This document shows, piece by piece, positions 2,194 through 17,036 of a DNA stretch of 64,000 nucleotides. The notes under the pieces were generated by a model, which saw only the letters and a program-made list of their open reading frames with translations, did not search any database and was not told where the DNA came from. Every line of letters begins with the position of its first letter. Positions within the stretch are counted from its first letter, which is position 1. The DNA is taken from positions 124,001 to 188,000 of the forward strand of contig NZ_JACZFR010000007.1 in NCBI RefSeq assembly GCF_014904815.1, written 5' to 3'. Made by a program: the position numbers and the translations under genes. The stretch is from Microbulbifer taiwanensis. GTDB taxonomy: Bacteria > Pseudomonadota > Gammaproteobacteria > Pseudomonadales > Cellvibrionaceae.

Positions 2194-4182
2194 TTAAACC
2201 CCAGCCCCTTCGGCGAATACTTCGCGCATCTCGGCCGGCGCGGGTTCCTGAATCCAGCCGTGGTAGACCTCGGTTTTCAGTTGCGCATAGAAGGCGTCAA
2301 TCTCGCCGCCGAAACGCTGCCACAGGTCTTTGGCCATCATCTCGCCGCTGTGTCGGGCGAGGAGGGTGGCCAGCGGCGCCCGGGACTTGATATCCGGTGT
2401 CTGTCCCAGGCGCAGAGGTGATATCAGTTCGGTTTGCGGGGCTTTCACGGGTTTTTCCTCTTCTTGTTCGGTACTGATGCCGGTGAGAGCTGCCACAGCT
2501 GTGCTAGCTAACCGGTCAGAAAGCTCCTTAGTTTGGTGGAGTTGGGATTCCAGCGCACCACAGATATGCATTAATTTCTCAACTCGATCCACAATACGAT
2601 CTTGCTCCTCAAGCGGTGGAATTGGCAACTCAAGCTGCTTTAGCTTCGCCGCCTTGATGCCCTTTGCTGTCATTCCCGTCGAATTGTCTATAAGTAGCTT
2701 TTGAAAAGTGGGTGACAACATAAAATTCATCGCACAGCGCGTATTGAGATCAGCGAATGGCTGTAGATCAATAATGCGTTGTGCCAACGCGAATTTCGGG
2801 TCATTCTCGATCAGTGCAACATTTCCTAAGGGTGCCTCGGTAGTAAAAAGCAAATCTCCTATTCTGGGATATCCGCGAGTCATCCATACTCTATAAGATT
2901 CTTCTGAAATGTATTCCTTAGGATCTTTGTTCAATTGCCCTGAGCGCACGTTCTTAGCCGTGATAAGGGTAACTCCTGAGCTAGTTTTGGGCGGAGTTTT
3001 TCCTCGATAATCAATAAACTGAAAGAGTGCATCTAATGGGATACGTTGCCAGTGTTCGGGAAGGTTAATATCCAGCTGAGTAACGTCAGTTGCTTTGGCA
3101 GCTTTACGTTTCATCTTTCCTGCAGAAAGTCGATCAGATTTTCCGCTGATGCAGCGTTCTGTGAATAGCTCTACGGATTCATCATTGTCGTCTTTCTCGG
3201 AAAGTAAACCGTGAATTGAAAGGTCAAGCACAAGGTTTCGCAGTTCATCTACATCCTCCGGTGCACTAAATAGCTGCTCGAAATTTGCTTCCAGCCGTGC
3301 CCAGGAATCCTGAAGTTCGTGCGGACTTTCGGCACTGGAGACTGCTCGCAGGGTGGATTGGCGCAGGGCGTTTTGCAGCTTGCGGTGCTCTTGTTGCTGC
3401 GCTTCCAGCTTGTCGCATAGGGCCATCAGCTCATCGACCTTGGCGACGATACGCGTTTGCTCTTCGAGTGGTGGCAGTGGAAACGCCCGAGTAGCAAAAT
3501 AGTCTGTGGGAAGTCGTTTCTGACCAGCGGTGCCTGTCATACTCTCCTTGCCTTCAGCAACAAAAAGTGGAGAGCGGAGAAAAAGGTAGACGTAAGTAGG
3601 CAGGACACCGTCGTGTATCGGGCGAAATACATGGAGTTCCGTAGATCCAGCTCCAATACCTAGATCACTTCGAAGATCTGTGATGACAGCTGATTTGCCA
3701 TTCTCAAAACACGGAGTGATTTTAGCCAGCACTACGTCATGATTGGAAAAATGAGTATAGCCTTTCTTGATTTTGCTCCACTGTTTTATCTCGACAAAAA
3801 GCGCTCCGAGATGAGTTTGCGGGATGCCACTCATTGGTACAAACGCCACCAGGCTGTCATCCGGGGCGTCGTTCCTTGGGCTGATCTCTCCAACGTCCAG
3901 CAATCGAGTCCAGCGCCAGGATTCTGGAATTTTAAACTCGAGCGGAGGTTGGACAGGTTCATTTTCAAGCTTCTTTATTCGCTTGTATTTTTTCTCACGG
4001 ATCAGACGTTGACGCACCTGTTCGATATCTGCCAGCAAAATTTCAACATCAGAATCCTGATCGCGTCTAGTTGAGAGAGAGCCCGTTACAGCAAGCTGGT
4101 AAATCATCTCCCTTAGCTGGGCTATGCCTCCCGGCGCGTTAACAATATGCCCAAATTCCGCCAAAAACTGCTGAGCGTCCAT
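2194..4182 (-). CDS. hsdS: Type I restriction-modification specificity subunit S
   Basis: A 662-aa protein that recognises the bipartite DNA target of the type I enzyme. The ATG at 4182 shares one base with the TGA stop of the DUF1016 gene. The open frame continues further upstream, but there it only shadows that gene. Two Methylase_S modules are visible: target recognition domain 1 (about residues 85-250) ending in PLPPLEEQTRIVAKVDEL and a conserved helix, and domain 2 (about 350-510) ending in PIPPLEEQDRIVDRVEKL and a second helix. Beyond these is an unusual C-terminal tail of about 110 residues, found in some HsdS relatives. Part of the first domain is AT-richer than the flanks, which fits the known exchange of recognition domains. 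It should assemble with HsdM and HsdR. Confidence 0.93.
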   Translation of the reverse strand: MDAQQFLAEFGHIVNAPGGIAQLREMIYQLAVTGSLSTRRDQDSDVEILLADIEQVRQRLIREKKYKRIKKLENEPVQPPLEFKIPESWRWTRLLDVGEISPRNDAPDDSLVAFVPMSGIPQTHLGALFVEIKQWSKIKKGYTHFSNHDVVLAKITPCFENGKSAVITDLRSDLGIGAGSTELHVFRPIHDGVLPTYVYLFLRSPLFVAEGKESMTGTAGQKRLPTDYFATRAFPLPPLEEQTRIVAKVDELMALCDKLEAQQQEHRKLQNALRQSTLRAVSSAESPHELQDSWARLEANFEQLFSAPEDVDELRNLVLDLSIHGLLSEKDDNDESVELFTERCISGKSDRLSAGKMKRKAAKATDVTQLDINLPEHWQRIPLDALFQFIDYRGKTPPKTSSGVTLITAKNVRSGQLNKDPKEYISEESYRVWMTRGYPRIGDLLFTTEAPLGNVALIENDPKFALAQRIIDLQPFADLNTRCAMNFMLSPTFQKLLIDNSTGMTAKGIKAAKLKQLELPIPPLEEQDRIVDRVEKLMHICGALESQLHQTKELSDRLASTAVAALTGISTEQEEEKPVKAPQTELISPLRLGQTPDIKSRAPLATLLARHSGEMMAKDLWQRFGGEIDAFYAQLKTEVYHGWIQEPAPAEMREVFAEGAGV

Positions 4183-5252
4183 CAGGCGTCTTCCTCCCCA
4201 ATATCTTGATTTCTTGCCAGTCGCGCCCGCGAGCGCTCTACGGCCTCGTGCAACTTGGCCTGCAGTACTTCCCTGGGTGGCAGTACGGTCAGGTACTCGG
4301 CCACGTGAATACCGCTGGCGTCCAGTTCCAGCAGTTCTATCTGCTCTTTCTTTTTGCCGCTGCACAGAATGATGCCCAGTGGCGGCTCCTCGCCCTGTTC
4401 CCGTTCGTGTCTGGCCAGCCAGCGCAGGTAGAGCTCCATCTGCCCCTTGTCGGCGGCCTTGAAGTCGCCGAGCTTGAGATCGATGGCCACTAGGCGCTTG
4501 AGGCGGCGGTTGTAGAACAGCAGGTCTATATAGAAGTCGTCGTTGTCGATCTGGATGCGCTTTTGCCGCGCCACGAAGGTGAAGCCGGCTCCCAGCTCCA
4601 GTAGAAAGAGTTCCAGCTCGCGCAGTATGGCGTCTTCCAGGTCTTTTTCCAGGTAGCGGTCGCGCAGGCCCAGGAAGTCCAGCACATAGGGATCTTTCAA
4701 TACCAGCGCAGGGCTCAGGTCGCCATTGTCGCGCAGGGCGGCCAGTTCCCGGTTCAACAGTTGGTCCGGTTGTTGGGAGAGGGCGGTGCGCTCGAAGAGC
4801 ATGGAGTCCAGGCGCTCCTGCAGGGTGCGGGTGCTCCAGCGCTCCTGCTGGCACATTTGCAGGTAGAAGTCGCGCTTGAGCGGGTCTTCGATATAGATCA
4901 GGGTCTTGATATGGGTCCAGCTCAATTGTCTCCGCACCGCGGAGACAATCTCCTCGGTGGGGAAGACTTCTGCAAAGCGCAGCATATGGCGCAGGTTCTT
5001 GACAGAGAAGCCGCGCCCGTACTCGGCCTGCAGCTGCCCCGCCAGGGCGGGGACTATCTGCTCGCCGTAGGCGGCGCGGTCGCCCTGCAGCACTTCGCGC
5101 CGGATGCGCTGGCCGATATGCCAGTAGAGCATGGTCAGCGCGCTGTTGACGGTGCGGGCGAGCTGGCGGCGGCTCTGTTCGATCAGCTGGCGGATATCGC
5201 CCAGTAGTCGTTGCTGGGCTGCCGCTGGGGCCGGTTTCTTTCCTGAGCTCAT
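4182..5252 (-). CDS. DUF1016 / YhcG-type PD-(D/E)XK nuclease family protein
   Basis: A 356-aa protein with the N-terminal DUF1016 region (about residues 15-170: LYWHIGQRI, GFSVKNLRHMLRFAE, LSWTHIKTL) and a C-terminal PD-(D/E)XK fold around DDFYIDLLFYNRRLKRLVAIDLKLG, where the D and the D-x-K are the presumed catalytic residues. YhcG-family proteins often sit inside type I restriction loci, but their function there is not settled. Its start overlaps the hsdM stop (ATGA) and its stop overlaps the hsdS start, so it is expressed with the methylase. It could be a second nuclease, a repair factor or a modulator of the complex. Confidence 0.88.
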   Translation of the reverse strand: MSSGKKPAPAAAQQRLLGDIRQLIEQSRRQLARTVNSALTMLYWHIGQRIRREVLQGDRAAYGEQIVPALAGQLQAEYGRGFSVKNLRHMLRFAEVFPTEEIVSAVRRQLSWTHIKTLIYIEDPLKRDFYLQMCQQERWSTRTLQERLDSMLFERTALSQQPDQLLNRELAALRDNGDLSPALVLKDPYVLDFLGLRDRYLEKDLEDAILRELELFLLELGAGFTFVARQKRIQIDNDDFYIDLLFYNRRLKRLVAIDLKLGDFKAADKGQMELYLRWLARHEREQGEEPPLGIILCSGKKKEQIELLELDASGIHVAEYLTVLPPREVLQAKLHEAVERSRARLARNQDIGEEDA

Positions 5253-7030
5253 TCCGCGGTGGCCTCTGCAACAAAGTGATGCGCCAGTGCGGCTGCCAGT
5301 TCACTCTTCAGGCGGTTTTCGGTCTCCTCGATTTCTCCCAAGAGGGTCTTGTACTTCTCCAGCAGGATATCGGGGTCGTGGCTCTCCTCTGCTGGCGCAT
5401 TAGGGTTTTTCTGATCGAGGTTGTAGATGGGCCAGTAGAGGCGATCGCCGGCAGCTTGGGCGTCGCGGGCCTGGAGGCGCAGGACGTCGGCCTTGTCGCG
5501 CAGTTCGGCTATCTCGTCTTCGACCGGCTTGCGCTTTTTCTTGGTGCTGACTCCCTTGATGGAGTCCCGCAGCTCGCGTATCTGCGTTTCCAGGAGCGAG
5601 GCCTCATTGTTCAATGCCTCTGCGCGATCCCAGTGTGGCCTGGCCGCGGACACGGCCGTTTCGCGCTTGGCCTTGAAGTCTAGCTTCCAGGCGAATTCAT
5701 TTTCCACCCGGTCGGCGAAGTCGTTGTCCTCCGAGCCCCACCAATCCTGCTCGGGTTTGAATTCCTCGAAGCGGATGGGTTTGGTCTTGGAATAGCTCTT
5801 GTAGCCCGGCGGGTAGGGGTGTTCGTGAAACCAGATAGTGTCGGTGTGGAAGTGCTCGCTGCCGTCATCCACCGTGGCACCCTTGGTAAAGAACAGCAGG
5901 TTGGTTTTGATGGTGGTGTAGGGGGCGAAGACGCCCTTGGGCAGGCGCACTATGGTGTGCAGTCTGCACTCGCGCAGCAGCTGTTCTTTCAGGGTGGCCT
6001 TGATGCCCTCGCCGAACAGGAAGCCGTCCGGCAGCACTACGGCGGCGCGGCCGTTTTCTTTCAGCAGCTTCTTGACGATCAGCGCCATAAACATATCGGC
6101 GGTCTCGCGGGTGCGCAGATTTGCCGGGTAGTCGCTGCCGGCGCCATCGTCTTCGTAACCGCCAAAGGGCGGGTTGGTGATGACACAATCGACCTTGTCA
6201 TCGCGGCCCCAGTCGTTCCAGGCTCTACCCAGAGTGTTTCTGTGTTCTACCTGGCTGGGGACGTCGATACCGTGCAGCAGCATATTGGTGGTGCACAGCA
6301 GGTGTGGCAGTTGTTTTTTTTCGATGCCGCGGATGGCCGCCTCAATCGCGCGTTGCTCCCTGACGCCAGACTTGGTTGTTCGTTGATTCCGCAAGTAGTC
6401 AATCGTGGCAGTTAAGAAGCCACCGGTGCCGCAGGCCGGGTCTAGCACCACCTCTTTCTTTTTCAGCCTTGGATTGACTCTGTCTACCATAAACTGGGTG
6501 ATGGCGCGCGGCGTATAGAATTCGCCGGCATTGCCGGCGCCGCGCAAGTCATTGAGCAGCTGCTCGTACACATCCCCCAAGTTGGCGCGGGTCTTGAAGT
6601 CGTGGAAGTCGATGGCCTCTTCCAGTTTTTCGATCACGGCCAGCAACTGGGTGCCGGACTTCATGTAGTTGTTGGCGTCCTCGAAGACGCTGCGGATCAC
6701 CTTGTGCTGCGGGCTCCGACTGGCATCCAGCTCCTTCAGTGTGGGAAACAGATCGTTATTGACGAAATTGATGATGGCCATTCCGGGCCTCTGCGGCATT
6801 TTCTTGCCGTCCACGCCTGGCACATAGGCGGCCCAGTTGCGCCAGCGGTATTCACTGGGGAGGGGGGAGCGGTATTTGGGATTGTCGTCTTCCCACTCCT
6901 CTTCGCGCTGATCGAACACCTTGAGGAAAAGCATCCAGGTAAGCTGACCCAGGCGCTGGGCGTCGCCGTCGACGCCGTCGTCCTTGCGCATAATGTCCTG
7001 GATGGATTTGATGGTACTGCTGAGATTCAT
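5249..7030 (-). CDS. hsdM: Type I restriction-modification methyltransferase subunit M
   Basis: A 593-aa N6-adenine methyltransferase. The N-terminal HsdM helical domain (residues 1-160) is followed by the SAM-binding motif DPACGTGGF (about 197-205) and the catalytic motif NPPF (about 286). The C-terminus contains a coiled-coil segment (ETQIRELRDSIKGV, DEIAELRDKADVLRLQ) that would contact HsdS. It methylates the host recognition sites so that HsdR does not cut them, working as M2S1. It lies 24 bp after hsdR and overlaps the DUF1016 gene by four bases. Confidence 0.96.
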   Translation of the reverse strand: MNLSSTIKSIQDIMRKDDGVDGDAQRLGQLTWMLFLKVFDQREEEWEDDNPKYRSPLPSEYRWRNWAAYVPGVDGKKMPQRPGMAIINFVNNDLFPTLKELDASRSPQHKVIRSVFEDANNYMKSGTQLLAVIEKLEEAIDFHDFKTRANLGDVYEQLLNDLRGAGNAGEFYTPRAITQFMVDRVNPRLKKKEVVLDPACGTGGFLTATIDYLRNQRTTKSGVREQRAIEAAIRGIEKKQLPHLLCTTNMLLHGIDVPSQVEHRNTLGRAWNDWGRDDKVDCVITNPPFGGYEDDGAGSDYPANLRTRETADMFMALIVKKLLKENGRAAVVLPDGFLFGEGIKATLKEQLLRECRLHTIVRLPKGVFAPYTTIKTNLLFFTKGATVDDGSEHFHTDTIWFHEHPYPPGYKSYSKTKPIRFEEFKPEQDWWGSEDNDFADRVENEFAWKLDFKAKRETAVSAARPHWDRAEALNNEASLLETQIRELRDSIKGVSTKKKRKPVEDEIAELRDKADVLRLQARDAQAAGDRLYWPIYNLDQKNPNAPAEESHDPDILLEKYKTLLGEIEETENRLKSELAAALAHHFVAEATAE

Positions 7031-7054
7031 CTCGTTGTTCTCGTATTCCTGAAA

Positions 7055-9496
7055 TTACGCCGGCTCGGTCTGTTGCCGTTGCGGCGTGTTGTAGATTGCC
7101 TGTTCGAGTTCATGTAGGGCGTGGGTGTATTGTTCGACACCGCCAAAGATACCGCGCCGGATTTGTGTCTTGCTGCCAAATCCATCAAAGGGGGGCAGCT
7201 CCAGCACTTTTGCGTCTTCTATGTCCTGGACGCCGTGGTCTGCAAACTTGTCCAGCAAGGCTTCCAGTACTGCGCGGGCCTGTTCACCATACTTCCCGAA
7301 CACGTCCCGCTTTTTGACGTTGTTGGCGCGCTCGCGCCGGGTGAGCGGTTCCTGATCGAAGGCGACATGGGCCACCAGGTCGAATGCGTCGAGCTCATCT
7401 CCATTGGGGATTGCCTGTTGCAACACAGCAAGGGGGACGCCGTGTTCGGCCAGTTCCTCGAGCACGGCCTGCTTGCGCTCGGCATTGTTCCACCGGCGCA
7501 GGAAGTCCTTGAGGCTGCCGAACTCAGCTTGCAGTGCTCTTCTGATGTCGCCCCTGAGCAGGACTCGGTAGTCTTCGGTGATCAGTTTGCCCTCGGCATC
7601 CAGGTATTGGGAGCGCTCCACGGCCAGGCGCACGTCCACGTCGTCGATAATGTACTTGGTGCGGCCTTCACCTGCGTTTCCATTTCTATCGCCGCCAGTT
7701 GGTATGGCGTTATCCATCGGGTCCGGGCTATAGGGAGGAACTTCCGGCTCATCGGTGCTCGGCCCATCCATAGAATCCGGAGGGATTACGGGGTCGTCTG
7801 CCTTGGGCTCGTAGATCACTGTGGGTTCGCCGTCGAAGTCTGGATCGGCGAACAGGCGTGTGGCGCCTTTGAAGTCTATGATGGTGAAGTAGAGCTTCTG
7901 ATAGTCCTCGCGCAGGCGGGTGCCACGACCGATGATCTGTTTGAATTCCGTCATCGAGTTGATGTTCTGATCGAGCACGATCAACTTGCAGGTCTTGGCG
8001 TCGACGCCGGTGGTCAGCAGCTTGGAGGTGGTGGCGATGACCGGGTAGGGCTCGTCGTTGTCAATGAAGTAGGAGAGTTGGGCCTTGCCTTCCCTGTCGT
8101 CACCAGTGATGCGCATTACATAGCGACGGTTACTGGCGGCGGCCGGGATGATTTTTACCAGCGCTTGCCGCATGCGTTCTGCGTGGTCCTGGTTGTCGCA
8201 AAACACAATAGTCTTTGCCATCGGATCGGTGACCTTGAGATATTCCCAGACCTTAGTGGCAACTAGCTGTGTACGCTTTTCCAGTACCAGATTGCGGTCG
8301 AAGTCTTTGGTGTTGTACTGGCGCTGTTCCACGAGTTGGCCCAGCTTGTCGAACTTGCCTTTCTCGGGGGTATACCCCACCGCATCGACGTCGGTTGCGA
8401 TGCGAATGACCTTATAGGGAGCCAGGAAGCCATCCTCGATGCCCTGTTTTAGCGAGTAGGTATAAATGGGGTTCCCGAAGTAGGTGGTGTTGCTGGCCTC
8501 TTTCGTCTCTCTGGGTGTGGCGGTCAGCCCCAGGTGCGTGGCGCTGCTGAAATAGTCGAGTACTTCGCGCCAGGCGGAATCGTCTGCGGCGCTGCCGCGA
8601 TGGCATTCGTCGATGACGACCAGGTCAAAGAAGTCCGTGGGGAATTGCCGATAAATCTGCTTCCACTCTTCTTTCCCGGTAACGGCTTGGTAGAGCGCGA
8701 GGTAGATCTCGTAGTTCTTCTTTACCTTGCGGTTGGTGACCTTGTGCATGACCTCGCCGAAGGGGGCGAAATCCTGCTGTATGGTCTGGTCGACGAGGAT
8801 GTTGCGGTCGGCCAAAAACAGGATGCGTTTCCGAGTCTTGGCTTTCCATAGTCGCCAGATGATCTGGAAGGCCGTATAAGTTTTGCCTGTACCGGTGGCC
8901 ATGACCAGCAACACGCGCTCTTGGCCCTTAGCAATGGCTTCGATAGCGCGGTTAATGGCTACCCGCTGGTAGTAGCGAGGTTCCTTGCCGCTGCCGTCAG
9001 TGTGAAATGGCTGTTCTACAAGTTGTATGGCATCGGCTTCAGCGAGGTCCTTCCACTCCTGATACAGTTGCCATAGTTCATCCAGTGTAGGGAACTGGTC
9101 GAGTTTGAGCTCACGCTCGATGGGCTGGGTCAAAGCGGTGCGGTCGTGGAGCAGGAAGCCCTCGCCGTTGCTGCTGACGGCAAAGGGAGCATCCAGCATT
9201 TCAGCGTAGGTCAGCGCCTGCTGCATCCCGTGGCCGATTGAAAAGCGTGCCTGCTTGGCCTCGATTACTGCGATTGGCAGGTTGGAGCGCGCATAGAGCA
9301 CGTAATCGGCGCGCTTTGGGCCACCTTTGACTTTGGGATTGAGGATGCGCGCCGCGAGCTTGCCGCGGACCATCACTCGACCATCGGTCAAATTCACTTC
9401 TTCTCGAAACTGGTGCTGCTGCCAGCCGGCTTGTTGGAGGGCCGGAGTGATAAACTTGGTGCAGATATCGCGTTCAGAGAGTTCTTTTTTATTCAT
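7055..9496 (-). CDS. hsdR: Type I restriction enzyme subunit R (EcoEI-like)
   Basis: An 813-aa motor and nuclease subunit. The N-terminal nuclease domain has the PD-(D/E)XK pattern ADYVLY...AVIEAKQ (residues 63-82). The SF2 helicase domain has Walker A MATGTGKT (199-206), the DECH box VVIDECHRGS (about 293) and motif VI near IIGRGTRLRED. The C-terminal part matches the EcoEI_R_C type. It translocates unmethylated foreign DNA and cleaves it. It is the first gene of the operon, and nothing else reads into it within 200 bp. Confidence 0.96.
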   Translation of the reverse strand: MNKKELSERDICTKFITPALQQAGWQQHQFREEVNLTDGRVMVRGKLAARILNPKVKGGPKRADYVLYARSNLPIAVIEAKQARFSIGHGMQQALTYAEMLDAPFAVSSNGEGFLLHDRTALTQPIERELKLDQFPTLDELWQLYQEWKDLAEADAIQLVEQPFHTDGSGKEPRYYQRVAINRAIEAIAKGQERVLLVMATGTGKTYTAFQIIWRLWKAKTRKRILFLADRNILVDQTIQQDFAPFGEVMHKVTNRKVKKNYEIYLALYQAVTGKEEWKQIYRQFPTDFFDLVVIDECHRGSAADDSAWREVLDYFSSATHLGLTATPRETKEASNTTYFGNPIYTYSLKQGIEDGFLAPYKVIRIATDVDAVGYTPEKGKFDKLGQLVEQRQYNTKDFDRNLVLEKRTQLVATKVWEYLKVTDPMAKTIVFCDNQDHAERMRQALVKIIPAAASNRRYVMRITGDDREGKAQLSYFIDNDEPYPVIATTSKLLTTGVDAKTCKLIVLDQNINSMTEFKQIIGRGTRLREDYQKLYFTIIDFKGATRLFADPDFDGEPTVIYEPKADDPVIPPDSMDGPSTDEPEVPPYSPDPMDNAIPTGGDRNGNAGEGRTKYIIDDVDVRLAVERSQYLDAEGKLITEDYRVLLRGDIRRALQAEFGSLKDFLRRWNNAERKQAVLEELAEHGVPLAVLQQAIPNGDELDAFDLVAHVAFDQEPLTRRERANNVKKRDVFGKYGEQARAVLEALLDKFADHGVQDIEDAKVLELPPFDGFGSKTQIRRGIFGGVEQYTHALHELEQAIYNTPQRQQTEPA

Positions 9497-9767: not shown

Positions 9768-9778
9768 GGTATTGGTGG

Positions 9779-9794
9779 GATGGCGGGAGTCGAA
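9779..9794. other. attL core, with displaced ssrA 3' end
   Basis: The 16-bp sequence GATGGCGGGAGTCGAA is identical to 16654-16669 in the T-arm region of tmRNA. To its left, TTGGTGG (9772-9778) matches the tmRNA 3' end but lacks one A that is present at the functional copy. This side therefore looks like the displaced, slightly decayed original 3' end. Confidence 0.8.
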
Positions 9795-10590: not shown

Positions 10591-10881
10591 TCACGGCAGG
10601 GTGGCAGGCTGAACGCAGGTTGAGACTACCGCTACAAGGGAACGGCGGGCGCAATGCCCCCTACGCCAGCCCGCCATAACAGGGAGCTGTCGCGCACAAA
10701 AAAAGCCGCATACACGGGTAGGCGACTTCGACGCGCCTTGTAATTTCGGGGTCTCAATCCCGGCTGCCGATTTTGCGACAGCGGATCCAGAATAGGCCAT
10801 TAGATTAACTGGGGTCAATAACTGCAGGGCTGCCCAGCGGGGGATTGTGGAGGCGGCGGCGCCAGAGGAGCTTATTGGCAC
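10591..10881 (-). CDS. Possible Ash-like small ORF
   Basis: A 96-codon frame ending 42 bp before the 136-aa gene. Its second half (SAVAKSAAGIETPKLQGAS, then TRVCGFFCARQLPVMAGWRRG) resembles small ORFs annotated as Ash-family proteins in phages and P4-like satellites. These typically read AVAKSAxGIxTP, then a cysteine/phenylalanine-rich segment and a VMAGW-like motif. The resemblance is from memory. The true start is unclear and the frame may be a relic or a regulatory leader. The segment also contains a 15-bp repeat also found at the right end of the island (10799-10813). Confidence 0.35.
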   Translation of the reverse strand: MPISSSGAAASTIPRWAALQLLTPVNLMAYSGSAVAKSAAGIETPKLQGASKSPTRVCGFFCARQLPVMAGWRRGHCARRSLVAVVSTCVQPATLP

Positions 10882-14626: not shown

Positions 14627-14848
14627 CTAACATTGTGCTTCCGCGATAAGTTCCCGCTTCAGCTCCAGCAGATAGGAGCCTTCCCATACGGTGGTTTTCG
14701 GGCCCAGCTTGATTCCGCGCTGGGCGCGTCCGGTCTTGGTCCAGTTCCACCAGGTGGAAAGGCCAATGCCAAACAGGCGCGCACATTCCGGCGCCCGATA
14801 CATGGCCGCGGGGTTAACGGTTGGTGGTTGGGACAGGTCTTTTTGCAT
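14627..14848 (-). CDS. alpA: AlpA-family transcriptional regulator
   Basis: A 73-aa MerR/excisionase-type winged helix protein: YRAPECARLFGIGLSTWWNWTKTG contains the helix-turn-helix, followed by a basic wing (GIKLGPKTTVW). AlpA proteins activate int or serve as excisionases of satellites such as P4-like islands. It heads a compact operon of four genes. Only 25 bp separate its ATG from a strong terminator at 14878-14898, and no promoter fits in that gap. Its expression must therefore depend on read-through of terminators. Confidence 0.85.
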   Translation of the reverse strand: MQKDLSQPPTVNPAAMYRAPECARLFGIGLSTWWNWTKTGRAQRGIKLGPKTTVWEGSYLLELKRELIAEAQC

Positions 14849-14877
14849 GGTCAGTTCTCCAGCCTTCAGGCATAAAA

Positions 14878-14898
14878 AAACCGGCTCGAGGCCGGTTT
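14878..14898 (-). terminator. Terminator T4, directly before alpA
   Basis: An 8-bp stem (AAACCGGC 14878-14885 with GCCGGTTT 14891-14898), a 5-nt loop and a run of seven T on the minus strand (14874-14880). Confidence 0.8.
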
Positions 14899-14910
14899 AC
14901 AGGTACAAAA

Positions 14911-14932
14911 AAACCCGCACAGAGGCGGGTTT
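14911..14932 (-). terminator. Terminator T3 in the alpA leader
   Basis: An 8-bp stem (AAACCCGC 14911-14918 with GCGGGTTT 14925-14932), a 6-nt loop and a T run on the minus strand. It sits about 10 bases upstream of T4 in the direction of transcription. Confidence 0.8.
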
Positions 14933-14952
14933 ACGGATGAAATTTGGGGCAC

Positions 14953-15017
14953 AAAAAAGCCCGCTATTTGCGGGCTTCAGATGATTCTGGTCGTGCGCCT
15001 ACAGCTTTCGCGCAGCG
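14953..15017 (-). ncRNA. Putative small RNA A (about 65 nt) of the island
   Basis: It is bounded by a consensus promoter (15024-15052) and an intrinsic terminator (stem 14957-14964 with 14970-14977, then six T). The RNA would contain a 5-bp hairpin UGCGC/GCGCA whose loop carries AGCUGUAG. It is paralogous to RNA B in size, layout and the conserved GCUGUA(A/G)GCGCA core. No coding frame of note is present. Size and position recall the CI immunity RNA of satellite P4 (about 69 nt), but no sequence similarity is claimed. Confidence 0.6.
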
Positions 15018-15023
15018 TAGCAA

Positions 15024-15052
15024 AATTTACCCACTCAAAGGTCACAGGTCAA
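15024..15052 (-). promoter_or_regulatory. Sigma-70 promoter of small RNA A
   Basis: Minus-strand TTGACC (15052-15047), 17-bp spacer, TAAATT (15029-15024). Start expected near 15017. Confidence 0.7.
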
Positions 15053-15085
15053 CGCATTTAAGATAAGTGGGGAGGTTTGAGGATT

Positions 15086-15150
15086 AAAAAAGCCCGCGAG
15101 GTGCGGGCTTTCGGGTGTCTGGTTGATGCGCTTACAGCTCTTGCAAGCTA
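15086..15150 (-). ncRNA. Putative small RNA B (about 65 nt) of the island
   Basis: The second copy of the unit, 133 bp upstream of RNA A. The promoter is at 15157-15185 and the terminator stem AAAGCCCGC (15089-15097) with GCGGGCTTT (15103-15111) has a 5-nt loop and a T run. It shares the conserved core GCUGUAAGCGCA with RNA A, while the 5' half and the spacer before the terminator have diverged. It lies about 80 bp after the integrase stop. Confidence 0.6.
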
Positions 15151-15156
15151 TAGCAG

Positions 15157-15185
15157 AATTTACCCTCAACTCCGCCAACTGTCAA
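15157..15185 (-). promoter_or_regulatory. Sigma-70 promoter of small RNA B
   Basis: Minus-strand TTGACA (15185-15180), a perfect -35, 17-bp spacer, TAAATT (15162-15157). Start expected near 15150. Confidence 0.75.
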
Positions 15186-15227
15186 CGCTGCCTGAGACGG
15201 CTTTAGCGGGCTTTAGCTTAATAATGG

Positions 15228-16457
15228 CTACCGCTCGCCAAACGCCGCGGTAATCACGTTGTCGGCGCCGGCCTGTACCTGCAGGTTGTCCAGGTAGTCC
15301 GCCCATTTCTGCATCATTGCGGCCCGCTGGGGCAGATGCTTGGTGCGGTTGTAAGCGCGCCCCAGAGTGTCCTTCACTCCGTGCGCCAGCTGGTGCTCGA
15401 TGTAGTCCACCCGGAAGCCCAGAACCTCGTCCAGCAGTGTTCTCGCCATTGCGCGGAAGCCGTGGGCGGTCATGGTGTCGTTGTCATAGCCCAGGGAGCG
15501 TAGCGCAGTCCTGACGCCGTTATCGGACAGGGGGCGGCTCTGGCCCCGGGCAGATGGGAAAACATACTTGCCGCGGCCGGTGAGGGGCTCCAGCTCCCGC
15601 AGCAGCGCCAGCGCCTGCTCCGCCAGCGGGATAATATGCGGCTCACCCATTTTCATCTTCTCGGCCGGCAGCTCTATCTGGCAGGCCTCCCAGTTGATTT
15701 CCGACCACTCCAGCTTGCGCAGCTCCCCGGGGCGGCAGAACAGCAGCGGGGACAGCTTGAGGGCCGTTCTCACCACAGGGGTTCCCTGATACCCGTCTAT
15801 GGAGGCCATCAGGCGGCCCGCCCCCACGGGGTCGGTAATCGCGGCCAGGTGCTTTTTCTTGGTGGGGGTGAGTGCGCCGCTCAGGTCGCTGGTGGGGTCG
15901 CGGTCGGCCTTGCCGGTGGCCACAGCGAAGCGGAATACCTGGCTGGCTACCCGCTTCACCCGGTGGGCGGTTTCCAGGGCGCCGCGGCTCTCGATCCGGC
16001 GCAGGCATCGCAGCACTTCCGGGGCGGTGATTTCGGCAATGGGGCGTTTGCCCAGGTAGGGCAGCAGGTCGCTGTGGAGGGCGCGCTGGGCGCGGTCTTT
16101 GGATGATTTGGACAGGTGCGCCATCCGGGCCGCGAACCACTCCCCACTGACGGCGGCGAAGCTGTTGCGGTTGGCCTCGAGAGCGGATTCCTTGCGGGCG
16201 CGCTTCACGTCGCGGGGGTCTATGCCGGCGGCCACGTGCTGGCGGGCCTCGTCGCGGAGTTCCCGCGCGCGCTTCAGGCTCACATCAGGGTAAAGCCCCA
16301 GGGCCATCTCGGGGCGTTTGCCGTGAAGGCGGAAGCGGAATACCCAGCGCTTTGCACCGGTGGGGGTGACCTCAACGGCCAGGCCTTTCTCGTCGACCTC
16401 GATGTACTTCCTGTCGCGGGGCTTGAGCGCCCGGATCTTGGTATCTGACAGGGGCAT
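15228..16457 (-). CDS. int: Tyrosine-type site-specific integrase (P4-like)
   Basis: A 409-aa integrase that recombines the element with ssrA. The N-terminal DUF4102 arm-binding domain (residues 1-90) precedes a SAM-like core-binding domain (about 100-185) and the catalytic domain. The catalytic residues are visible: Arg242 (CRPGELRKLEW), His332-x2-Arg335 (HGFR), His359 (QLAHG) and the nucleophile Tyr369 (GRAYNR). The ATG follows AAGGAAGG. It stands 190 bp from the tmRNA 3' end, the usual place next to attR, and its upstream region holds three candidate arm sites. Confidence 0.95.
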   Translation of the reverse strand: MPLSDTKIRALKPRDRKYIEVDEKGLAVEVTPTGAKRWVFRFRLHGKRPEMALGLYPDVSLKRARELRDEARQHVAAGIDPRDVKRARKESALEANRNSFAAVSGEWFAARMAHLSKSSKDRAQRALHSDLLPYLGKRPIAEITAPEVLRCLRRIESRGALETAHRVKRVASQVFRFAVATGKADRDPTSDLSGALTPTKKKHLAAITDPVGAGRLMASIDGYQGTPVVRTALKLSPLLFCRPGELRKLEWSEINWEACQIELPAEKMKMGEPHIIPLAEQALALLRELEPLTGRGKYVFPSARGQSRPLSDNGVRTALRSLGYDNDTMTAHGFRAMARTLLDEVLGFRVDYIEHQLAHGVKDTLGRAYNRTKHLPQRAAMMQKWADYLDNLQVQAGADNVITAAFGER

Positions 16458-16646: not shown

Positions 16647-17036
16647 TGGTGGAGATGGCGGGAGTCGAACCCGCGTCCGTCAGCACTCTGCCAGAGGCTC
16701 TACATGCTTAGTTCCGTCTATTGATTTAGCCGCATACAGCCCGACGGGCAAGACGTAATTGGCGAGCCTGTGAAAGTTTTAGCGGATCCCCGACAGGCGC
16801 GGTTCACAGCGATCCAGTTCTGTATAACAGCCTGCAGCGCGGTACTGGAACCTTGCTGAAGGCCGCTAAGGGACGAACCCTTAGTTAGTGCTTCACAAGC
16901 TGCTTACGCAGCGAGTTGGGCACCGTAGTTGTCGTCGTTGGCAACTAATAAATTGCAGCTTTGGATTTACGTGATTGGCTGCCATCACGGCATGCACCCA
17001 TGGTTTCGTTACCGGCGTCGAATCCAAGTCATCCCC
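16647..17036 (-). ncRNA. ssrA: Transfer-messenger RNA (tmRNA)
   Basis: A 390-nt RNA that rescues stalled ribosomes with SmpB. The 5' end GGGGATGACTTGGATTCGAC is the conserved tmRNA start and the 3' end has a T-arm (GTTCGACTCCCGCC) and an encoded CCA. The acceptor stem 5' GGGGAUG pairs with CAUCUCC. The tag reading frame (16942-16904) encodes ANDDNYGAQLAA and stops at TAA. The last 23 bases overlap the attachment site of the neighbouring island, which supplies the 3' end and a new terminator. Confidence 0.97.
16654..16669. other. attR core inside the ssrA T-arm
   Basis: GATGGCGGGAGTCGAA, identical to 9779-9794. The bases to its left (16647-16653) complete a tmRNA 3' end with CCA that pairs well with the 5' end, so the island restores a functional gene. 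Confidence 0.8.

What the first reader, a model, noticed from the sequence alone, without database searches (positions are those of the whole stretch)
14873..15190. Two tandem paralogous small-RNA units and stacked terminators before alpA
Between int and alpA lie two units with a consensus promoter (TTGACA or TTGACC, 17 bp, TAAATT), about 65 transcribed bases and an intrinsic terminator. The units are 133 bp apart, share a conserved core GCUGUA(A/G)GCGCA and differ elsewhere. Two more terminators (14911-14932, 14878-14898) follow, and alpA starts 25 bp later with no space for its own promoter. The alpA operon must therefore be reached by read-through of up to four terminators. This recalls the termination-based, RNA-mediated immunity of P4, but with duplicated RNAs and no P4 sequence likeness that I can claim. 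Seen: promoters, stems, duplication. Inferred: immunity or antitermination role.
Basis: partly seen in the sequence, partly recalled or inferred. Interest (0 to 1): 0.85.

Follow-up and report, generated by a model that had tools for sequence, protein, structure and literature searches.

The report
Terminator gate before an excision-type gene
In a small mobile island beside the tmRNA gene, two strong promoters point at an excision-type gene but run into four stacked stop signals, so the gene probably opens only when something makes RNA polymerase ignore the stops; similar gates sit at the same place in a few other islands.

Summary
Between int and the alpA-like gene lie two sigma70-type promoters 133 bp apart, each about 66 nt ahead of an intrinsic terminator, then two more terminators; alpA starts 29 nt after the last stem, with no promoter-like site found in between. 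Four terminators in 379 bp compare with 0.05 in shuffles.

The units are not the Rfam int-alpA RNA (RF02996), which fills this slot in some relatives, nor the island's P4-CI/C4-type RNA: a C4/isrK module lies 4 kb downstream in the same 6.9-kb element. No exact copy of the shared core was found in 80 related integrase loci, but the architecture recurs: 8 of 161 integrase loci, window included, carry two or more terminators after int; four other elements have two or three tandem units, mostly 132-137 bp apart.

Best reading: a terminator gate on the alpA operon, crossed by antitermination (Q-like protein; inferred). It would bear on an open question, how helper phages switch on alpA. Against it: no antiterminator gene was recognised, the pause element is only suggestive, and E. 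coli PICI EcCICFT073 lacks such a gate.

The parts
15157..15185 (-). promoter 1, TTGACA-17-TAAATT
15085..15151 (-). unit 1 RNA, about 66 nt, start inferred; ends at terminator 1 (stem 15110-15090)
   Evidence: 5' hairpin plus terminator, fold z -4.1
15024..15052 (-). promoter 2, TTGACC-17-TAAATT
14952..15018 (-). unit 2 RNA, about 66 nt, start inferred; ends at terminator 2 (stem 14977-14957)
   Evidence: fold z -2.7
15127..15138 (-). shared core GCTGTAAGCGCA of unit 1
14994..15005 (-). shared core GCTGTAGGCGCA of unit 2
15014..15022 (-). TGCTACGCT, extended -10-like site near the start of unit 2 (candidate pause element; unit 1 has TGCTATAGC at 15155-15147)
   Evidence: enrichment over units only suggestive
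14905..14932 (-). terminator 3
14872..14898 (-). terminator 4
14627..14848 (-). AlpA-like (excisionase-type) gene, 73 aa
   Evidence: weak family evidence
15228..16457 (-). integrase
   Evidence: PF00589, PF22022, PF13356
10597..10795 (-). isrK, a1/b1 target and C4 antisense RNA of the same element
   Evidence: Rfam gathering hits
9773..9794 (.). left end repeat TGGTGGGATGGCGGGAGTCGAA
   Evidence: one base fewer than the tmRNA end
16647..16669 (.). right end repeat, 3' end of the tmRNA gene

Best explanation
It is a terminator gate on the alpA operon of a 6.9-kb ssrA-integrated mobile element. Two sigma70-type promoters fire towards alpA, and each makes a short RNA that stops at the first terminator; two further terminators catch leakage. 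No promoter was found for alpA itself, so it is expressed when RNA polymerase passes the stack. The most likely opener is a processive antiterminator loaded at the unit promoters, as with lambda Q, 21Q or Pseudomonas AlpA: promoter, -10-like pause sequence near the start, terminators close by. Loading at either promoter would let polymerase cross every terminator after it. Shown: promoters, terminators, duplication, recurrence of the layout. Inferred: that alpA needs read-through, that the opener is Q-like, and whether the element or a helper phage supplies it.
For: Four terminators and two promoters in 379 bp, far above shuffles; no promoter-like site in the last 135 bp before alpA. Same layout after int in L039, L040, L060, L366, L369, L374, L383 and L450, with two or three tandem units in L060, L366, L374 and L383. 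Within L374/L383 unit 2 the promoter and first ~20 transcribed bases are nearly unchanged while the terminator stem changes with compensation. Layout matches published Q-type promoters (PMC7969949 section 8; PMC9371919 passages). Unit 2 holds the only TGNTANNNT site of the gap.
Against: No antiterminator gene was recognised in the element (PDB sequence searches of two proteins; fold search of the 301-aa protein). Pause element only suggestive: TGCT in 8 of 12 units (0 of 1000 shuffles), but the best 4-mer in 300 shuffles also reached 8; TA...T 8 of 12 (22 of 1000), T[AG]...T 9 of 12 (312 of 1000); units, -10 sites and motif were chosen after looking. The -35/-10 fit is weak in L060, L366 and L450. 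The gate is rare and EcCICFT073 lacks it. L366/L369 conserve the whole RNA body, which hints at an RNA role.
Confidence: 0.45

Rival explanations
1. Two trans-acting small RNAs. The units are duplicated sRNA genes whose core pairs with host or helper mRNAs; the extra terminators only insulate alpA.
For: Complete promoter-RNA-terminator units; shared core beyond chance; 5' hairpins with fold z -4.1 and -2.7; conserved RNA body in L366/L369.
Against: No complementarity to the rest of the element beyond shuffles (36 of 60 and 13 of 60 shuffles as good; host and helper targets not searched). Tandem RNA bodies in L374 are poorly alike (units 1 and 2, 46% identity). It leaves alpA without a promoter.
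Confidence: 0.22
2. Passive insulator: the terminators keep int and upstream transcription out of alpA, which is driven by a promoter not recognised by consensus scans.
For: Stacked terminators; many relatives have no gate and alpA is reached some other way.
Against: Two near-consensus promoters inside the array point at alpA; no promoter-like site in the last 135 bp; the scan covers sigma70-type sites only.
Confidence: 0.18
3. P4-type immunity: the short RNAs act in trans to make transcripts terminate before alpA.
For: Short RNAs ahead of an operon, terminators, and an element that carries a C4/isrK module.
Against: C4 itself lies 4 kb away. The units match no Rfam family at gathering score; the best weak hits are Trp_leader 24.7 bits (cut-off 41) and isrK 22.4 bits (cut-off 50) over terminators 2-3. 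No complementarity above shuffles in the element (the alpA leader, C4 and isrK were also paired, without their own shuffles). The terminators are plain intrinsic ones.
Confidence: 0.1

Closest known systems
Q-type antitermination promoters (lambda, 21, 82; Pseudomonas AlpA at alpB and PA0807)
   Same: sigma70 promoter making a short terminated RNA, terminators at tens to hundreds of bases, candidate -10-like site near the start (PMC7969949 section 8; PMC9371919 passages)
   Different: Controls an alpA-type gene instead of late or lysis genes; tandem units and up to four terminators; no antiterminator or binding element identified. Pseudomonas AlpA is not related by name to the AlpA-like gene here.
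int-alpA RNA, RF02996
   Same: Occupies the same slot after int in related islands
   Different: Different sequence and structure; no match in the window even at E 10
P4 CI / C4 antisense RNA immunity
   Same: Gene control by transcription termination in a P4-like element (from general knowledge)
   Different: The C4 RNA of this element is a separate module at 10597-10681
Gifsy-1 isrK locus
   Same: Short terminated RNA plus read-through transcript, beside a Q-like antiterminator gene (PMC4825925 abstract and section 6)
   Different: One unit, ahead of anrP; units here reach isrK only at 22.4 and 15.8 bits against a cut-off of 50

Membership tests
Q-type antitermination promoter | sigma70 promoter followed by a nearby intrinsic terminator | tested here: met
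Q-type antitermination promoter | -10-like pause element in the first transcribed bases | tested here: inconclusive
   TGNTANNNT in unit 2; enrichment over 12 units weak after allowing for choice of motif
Q-type antitermination promoter | binding element and a cognate antiterminator protein | tested here: inconclusive
   No family hit among 8 element proteins; Q proteins are very diverse, helper phages not examined
int-alpA RNA RF02996 | covariance-model match | tested here: not met
   no hit at gathering nor at E 10; best in own genome E 0.64 on another contig
P4 CI / C4 antisense RNA | covariance-model match of the units | tested here: not met
   C4 found at 10597-10681 instead
P4 CI / C4 antisense RNA | complementarity to its target transcript | tested here: not met
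   no better than shuffles within the element
PICI/PICMI satellite | int next to alpA, small size, attachment repeats | tested here: inconclusive
   6.9 kb between repeats; AlpA-like only weakly supported; no primase recognised among 8 proteins
PICI/PICMI satellite | mobilisation by a helper phage | not testable with these tools
   needs induction or infection experiments

The most novel reading that the evidence does not exclude
The gate is a helper-phage sensor. A helper's Q-like antiterminator loads at the unit promoters and carries polymerase across the terminator stack, so the element excises only when a helper runs its late programme. Tandem non-identical units (two here, three in L374) would be separate receptors, any one of which opens what lies after it, widening the range of helpers sensed.
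Probability: 0.13. Interest if true: 0.88.

Novelty: new variant of a known kind. Interest (0 to 1): 0.58.

Why it matters
AlpA expression decides when several satellites leave the chromosome. In EcCICFT073 helper phages raise alpA expression and the inducer was unknown at the time (PMC6092414 passages); the PICMI paper asks outright how the helper activates the alpA regulon (PMC10803314 passages). A terminator gate on an alpA operon makes one answer, antitermination, testable with a simple reporter, at least for elements of this type; EcCICFT073 itself lacks the gate.

Tried and rejected
Covariance model of the two units: 155 of 244 order genomes match at E up to 0.05, but apart from the units (119-122 bits) nothing listed exceeds 37.9 bits; I read these as terminator hairpins and dropped them without inspecting each. 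The post-terminator motif GGGTTTTTTTRTGCCTG looked alpA-specific at first; reading the ORFs after 144 matches showed many different genes, so I dropped it. Pseudomonas AlpA element GGGACGN5GGTA: only the GGTA end is shared, by eye. The 301-aa protein: predicted fold (mean pLDDT 68) had no PDB match at E 0.001. EcCICFT073 as a positive case failed: 0 terminators in its gap. A promoter consensus with up to 3 mismatches finds only the two units in the own genome, reversed control 5, so no helper-like promoter was found there.

Mended on checking: an earlier count of 59 int-alpA gaps was wrong; it is 56 (55 loci and the window), and the Fisher test used the wrong total; one search replaces both. 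The AlpA profile was seeded with window-type proteins, so its E-values are circular and not used. In one search the L060 start was off by one; one search gives 27 nt.

Not in print, as far as three searches of the held library show (12 of 33, 10 of 53 and 10 of 10 papers listed): no listed title or abstract start describes a terminator gate on alpA. Passages or sections seen: PMC7969949, PMC9371919, PMC10803314, PMC7567579, PMC6092414, PMC4825925, PMC12370729, PMC2864571; in PMC11773190 a term search found none of its terms. The paper that defined the int-alpA motif is recalled, not seen.

Full report
Setting. The window lies in a genome placed in the genus of Microbulbifer (closest integrase 92% identical; genus mates share contigs with named Microbulbifer loci). 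A tmRNA gene (16647-17036) is followed on the minus strand by an integrase (15228-16457). A copy of the tmRNA 3' end lacking one base lies at 9773-9794, so the element is about 6.9 kb: int, the gate, an AlpA-like gene, a winged-helix protein, 62-aa, 301-aa and 277-aa proteins, an HTH-M78 protein, isrK, C4 and a 171-aa ORF. I looked for the repeat in the window and 20 kb to its left only; a whole-genome search with the 22-base tmRNA end and up to 3 mismatches found just the tmRNA itself.

Observation. The 379-bp gap has four intrinsic terminators against mean 0.05 and maximum 1 in 400 dinucleotide shuffles, and two promoter-like sites against 0.11. The simpler scan listed only terminators 3 and 4 on this strand and was not above chance over 2.8 kb. 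Unit bodies without promoter hexamers and terminators align with z 5.4 (0 of 2000 shuffles). No promoter-like site lies in the last 135 bp before alpA.

What it is not. Rfam's int-alpA RNA (RF02996) matches right after int in 2 of 16 relatives scanned (L038, L068) and passes its cut-off in 7 of 48 genomes of the genus (0 of 14 control genomes), but not in the window, even at E 10. The best weak Rfam hits of the units are Trp_leader (24.7 bits, cut-off 41) and isrK (22.4 bits, cut-off 50). C4, its a1/b1 target and isrK lie at 10597-10795, so the P4-CI-like part of the element is not at the units. Best pairings of the units with the rest of the element are matched by 36 of 60 and 13 of 60 shuffled units.

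Recurrence. Of 80 integrase loci (the best 80 of 223), 55 have an AlpA-like ORF within 4 kb by a profile that I seeded from both AlpA types. With the window that makes 56 gaps. Four have two or more terminators: the window (4), L060 (4), L039 (3) and L040 (2); these are 4 of 11 gaps up to 600 bp and 0 of 45 longer ones (Fisher p 0.0009; the 600-bp limit was chosen afterwards). Five longer gaps have one terminator. Many of the longer gaps hold another ORF between int and alpA. In 161 loci scanned together (80, 80, the window), 8 have two or more terminators within 1200 bp after int: those four and L366, L369, L374, L383. Of 19 loci I scanned 14 (four were the query loci, one a partial match; some share contigs): none has a terminator. 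Of 32 further loci (29 of 30, the window left out, and 3) one, L565, has two terminators about 700 bp apart and two have one. Of 108 alpA loci (78 of 80, the query-derived two left out, and 30) one, L450, has a stack of three. Of 30 Microbulbifer alpA loci only the window, L040 and L039 show a stack. So the gate is rare and scattered.

Tandem units. L060 has two units 91% alike; L374 three; L383, with a 97% identical integrase, two; L366 two by terminators and eye. Periods are 133 (window), 135 (L060), 137 and 135 by -35 but 155 by terminator for the third unit (L374), 134 by terminator or 132 by -35 (L383) and 135 (L366). The alpA start follows the last detected stem by 29 nt in the window, 22 in L366 and L369, 56 in L374 and 27 in L060; in L374 a further terminator-like hairpin with a longer loop sits closer, by eye.

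Conservation. In L374/L383 unit 2 the stretch from the -10 through about 20 transcribed bases is nearly unchanged and the terminator stem changes with compensation; in L366/L369 the whole body is conserved, which hints at an RNA role there. The window's 12-base core has no exact copy in the 80 loci (1 with one mismatch, 11 with two).

Mechanism. The layout is that of Q-type antitermination promoters: promoter, a -10-like sequence in the first transcribed bases that pauses polymerase, terminators close by. In Pseudomonas AlpA the pause sequence is CACGAT at -1 to +5 and at PA0807 terminators begin 26 and 247 bp after the start. Unit 2 of the window has TGCTACGCT near its start, the only TGNTANNNT in the gap. 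Over 12 units (15 collected, three near-duplicates dropped) TGCT lies within 22 nt of the -10 in 8 (shuffle mean 3.3, 0 of 1000 as high), but the best 4-mer in shuffles also reaches 8; TA...T is in 8 (22 of 1000) and T[AG]...T in 9 (312 of 1000). Units, -10 sites and motif were picked after looking, and some promoters (L060, L366, L450) are weak, so the pause is suggestive only. No antiterminator gene was recognised; it may come from a helper phage. Gifsy-1 isrK offers a precedent for a terminated RNA with read-through beside a Q-like gene (PMC4825925).

Against. EcCICFT073, whose alpA is raised by helper phages (PMC6092414 passages), has no terminator in its 365-bp gap. Seven of the 11 short gaps have no gate. 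The AlpA-like protein lies outside PF05930, so its role rests on position and a weak PHROG hit.

Verdict. A real and recurrent arrangement, not found in print. It most likely works as a termination/antitermination gate; the Q-type opener is inferred; P4-type immunity at this spot is unlikely.

Noticed in passing
window 10597-10795: An isrK / a1-b1 / C4 antisense RNA module, the relative of P4 CI immunity, lies downstream in the same element; L038 and L039 have isrK and C4 too.
   Followed up: partly
alpA leaders of L116-L118, L121-L129, L131, L134: In many Microbulbifer islands without the gate the alpA start codon follows a stem-loop whose loop holds the ribosome-binding site (GTATCAGC...GCTGATAC-ATG), with matching changes on both sides between islands; seen by eye, pairs not counted.
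   Followed up: no
int-alpA gaps of L035-L038, L041-L045, L055, L059: The slot between int and alpA holds different ORFs in different islands, so it looks like a cargo site.
   Followed up: no
L179-L298, L163-L178: Terminators followed by GGGTTTTTTTRTGCCTG recur in phage contigs ahead of many different genes; 11 of 244 order genomes have it, with 0 for the reversed pattern in the rows shown.
   Followed up: partly
window 2194-9496: A type I restriction-modification cluster (read from the ORF list, not family-searched) lies just outside the left end repeat of the element.
   Followed up: no
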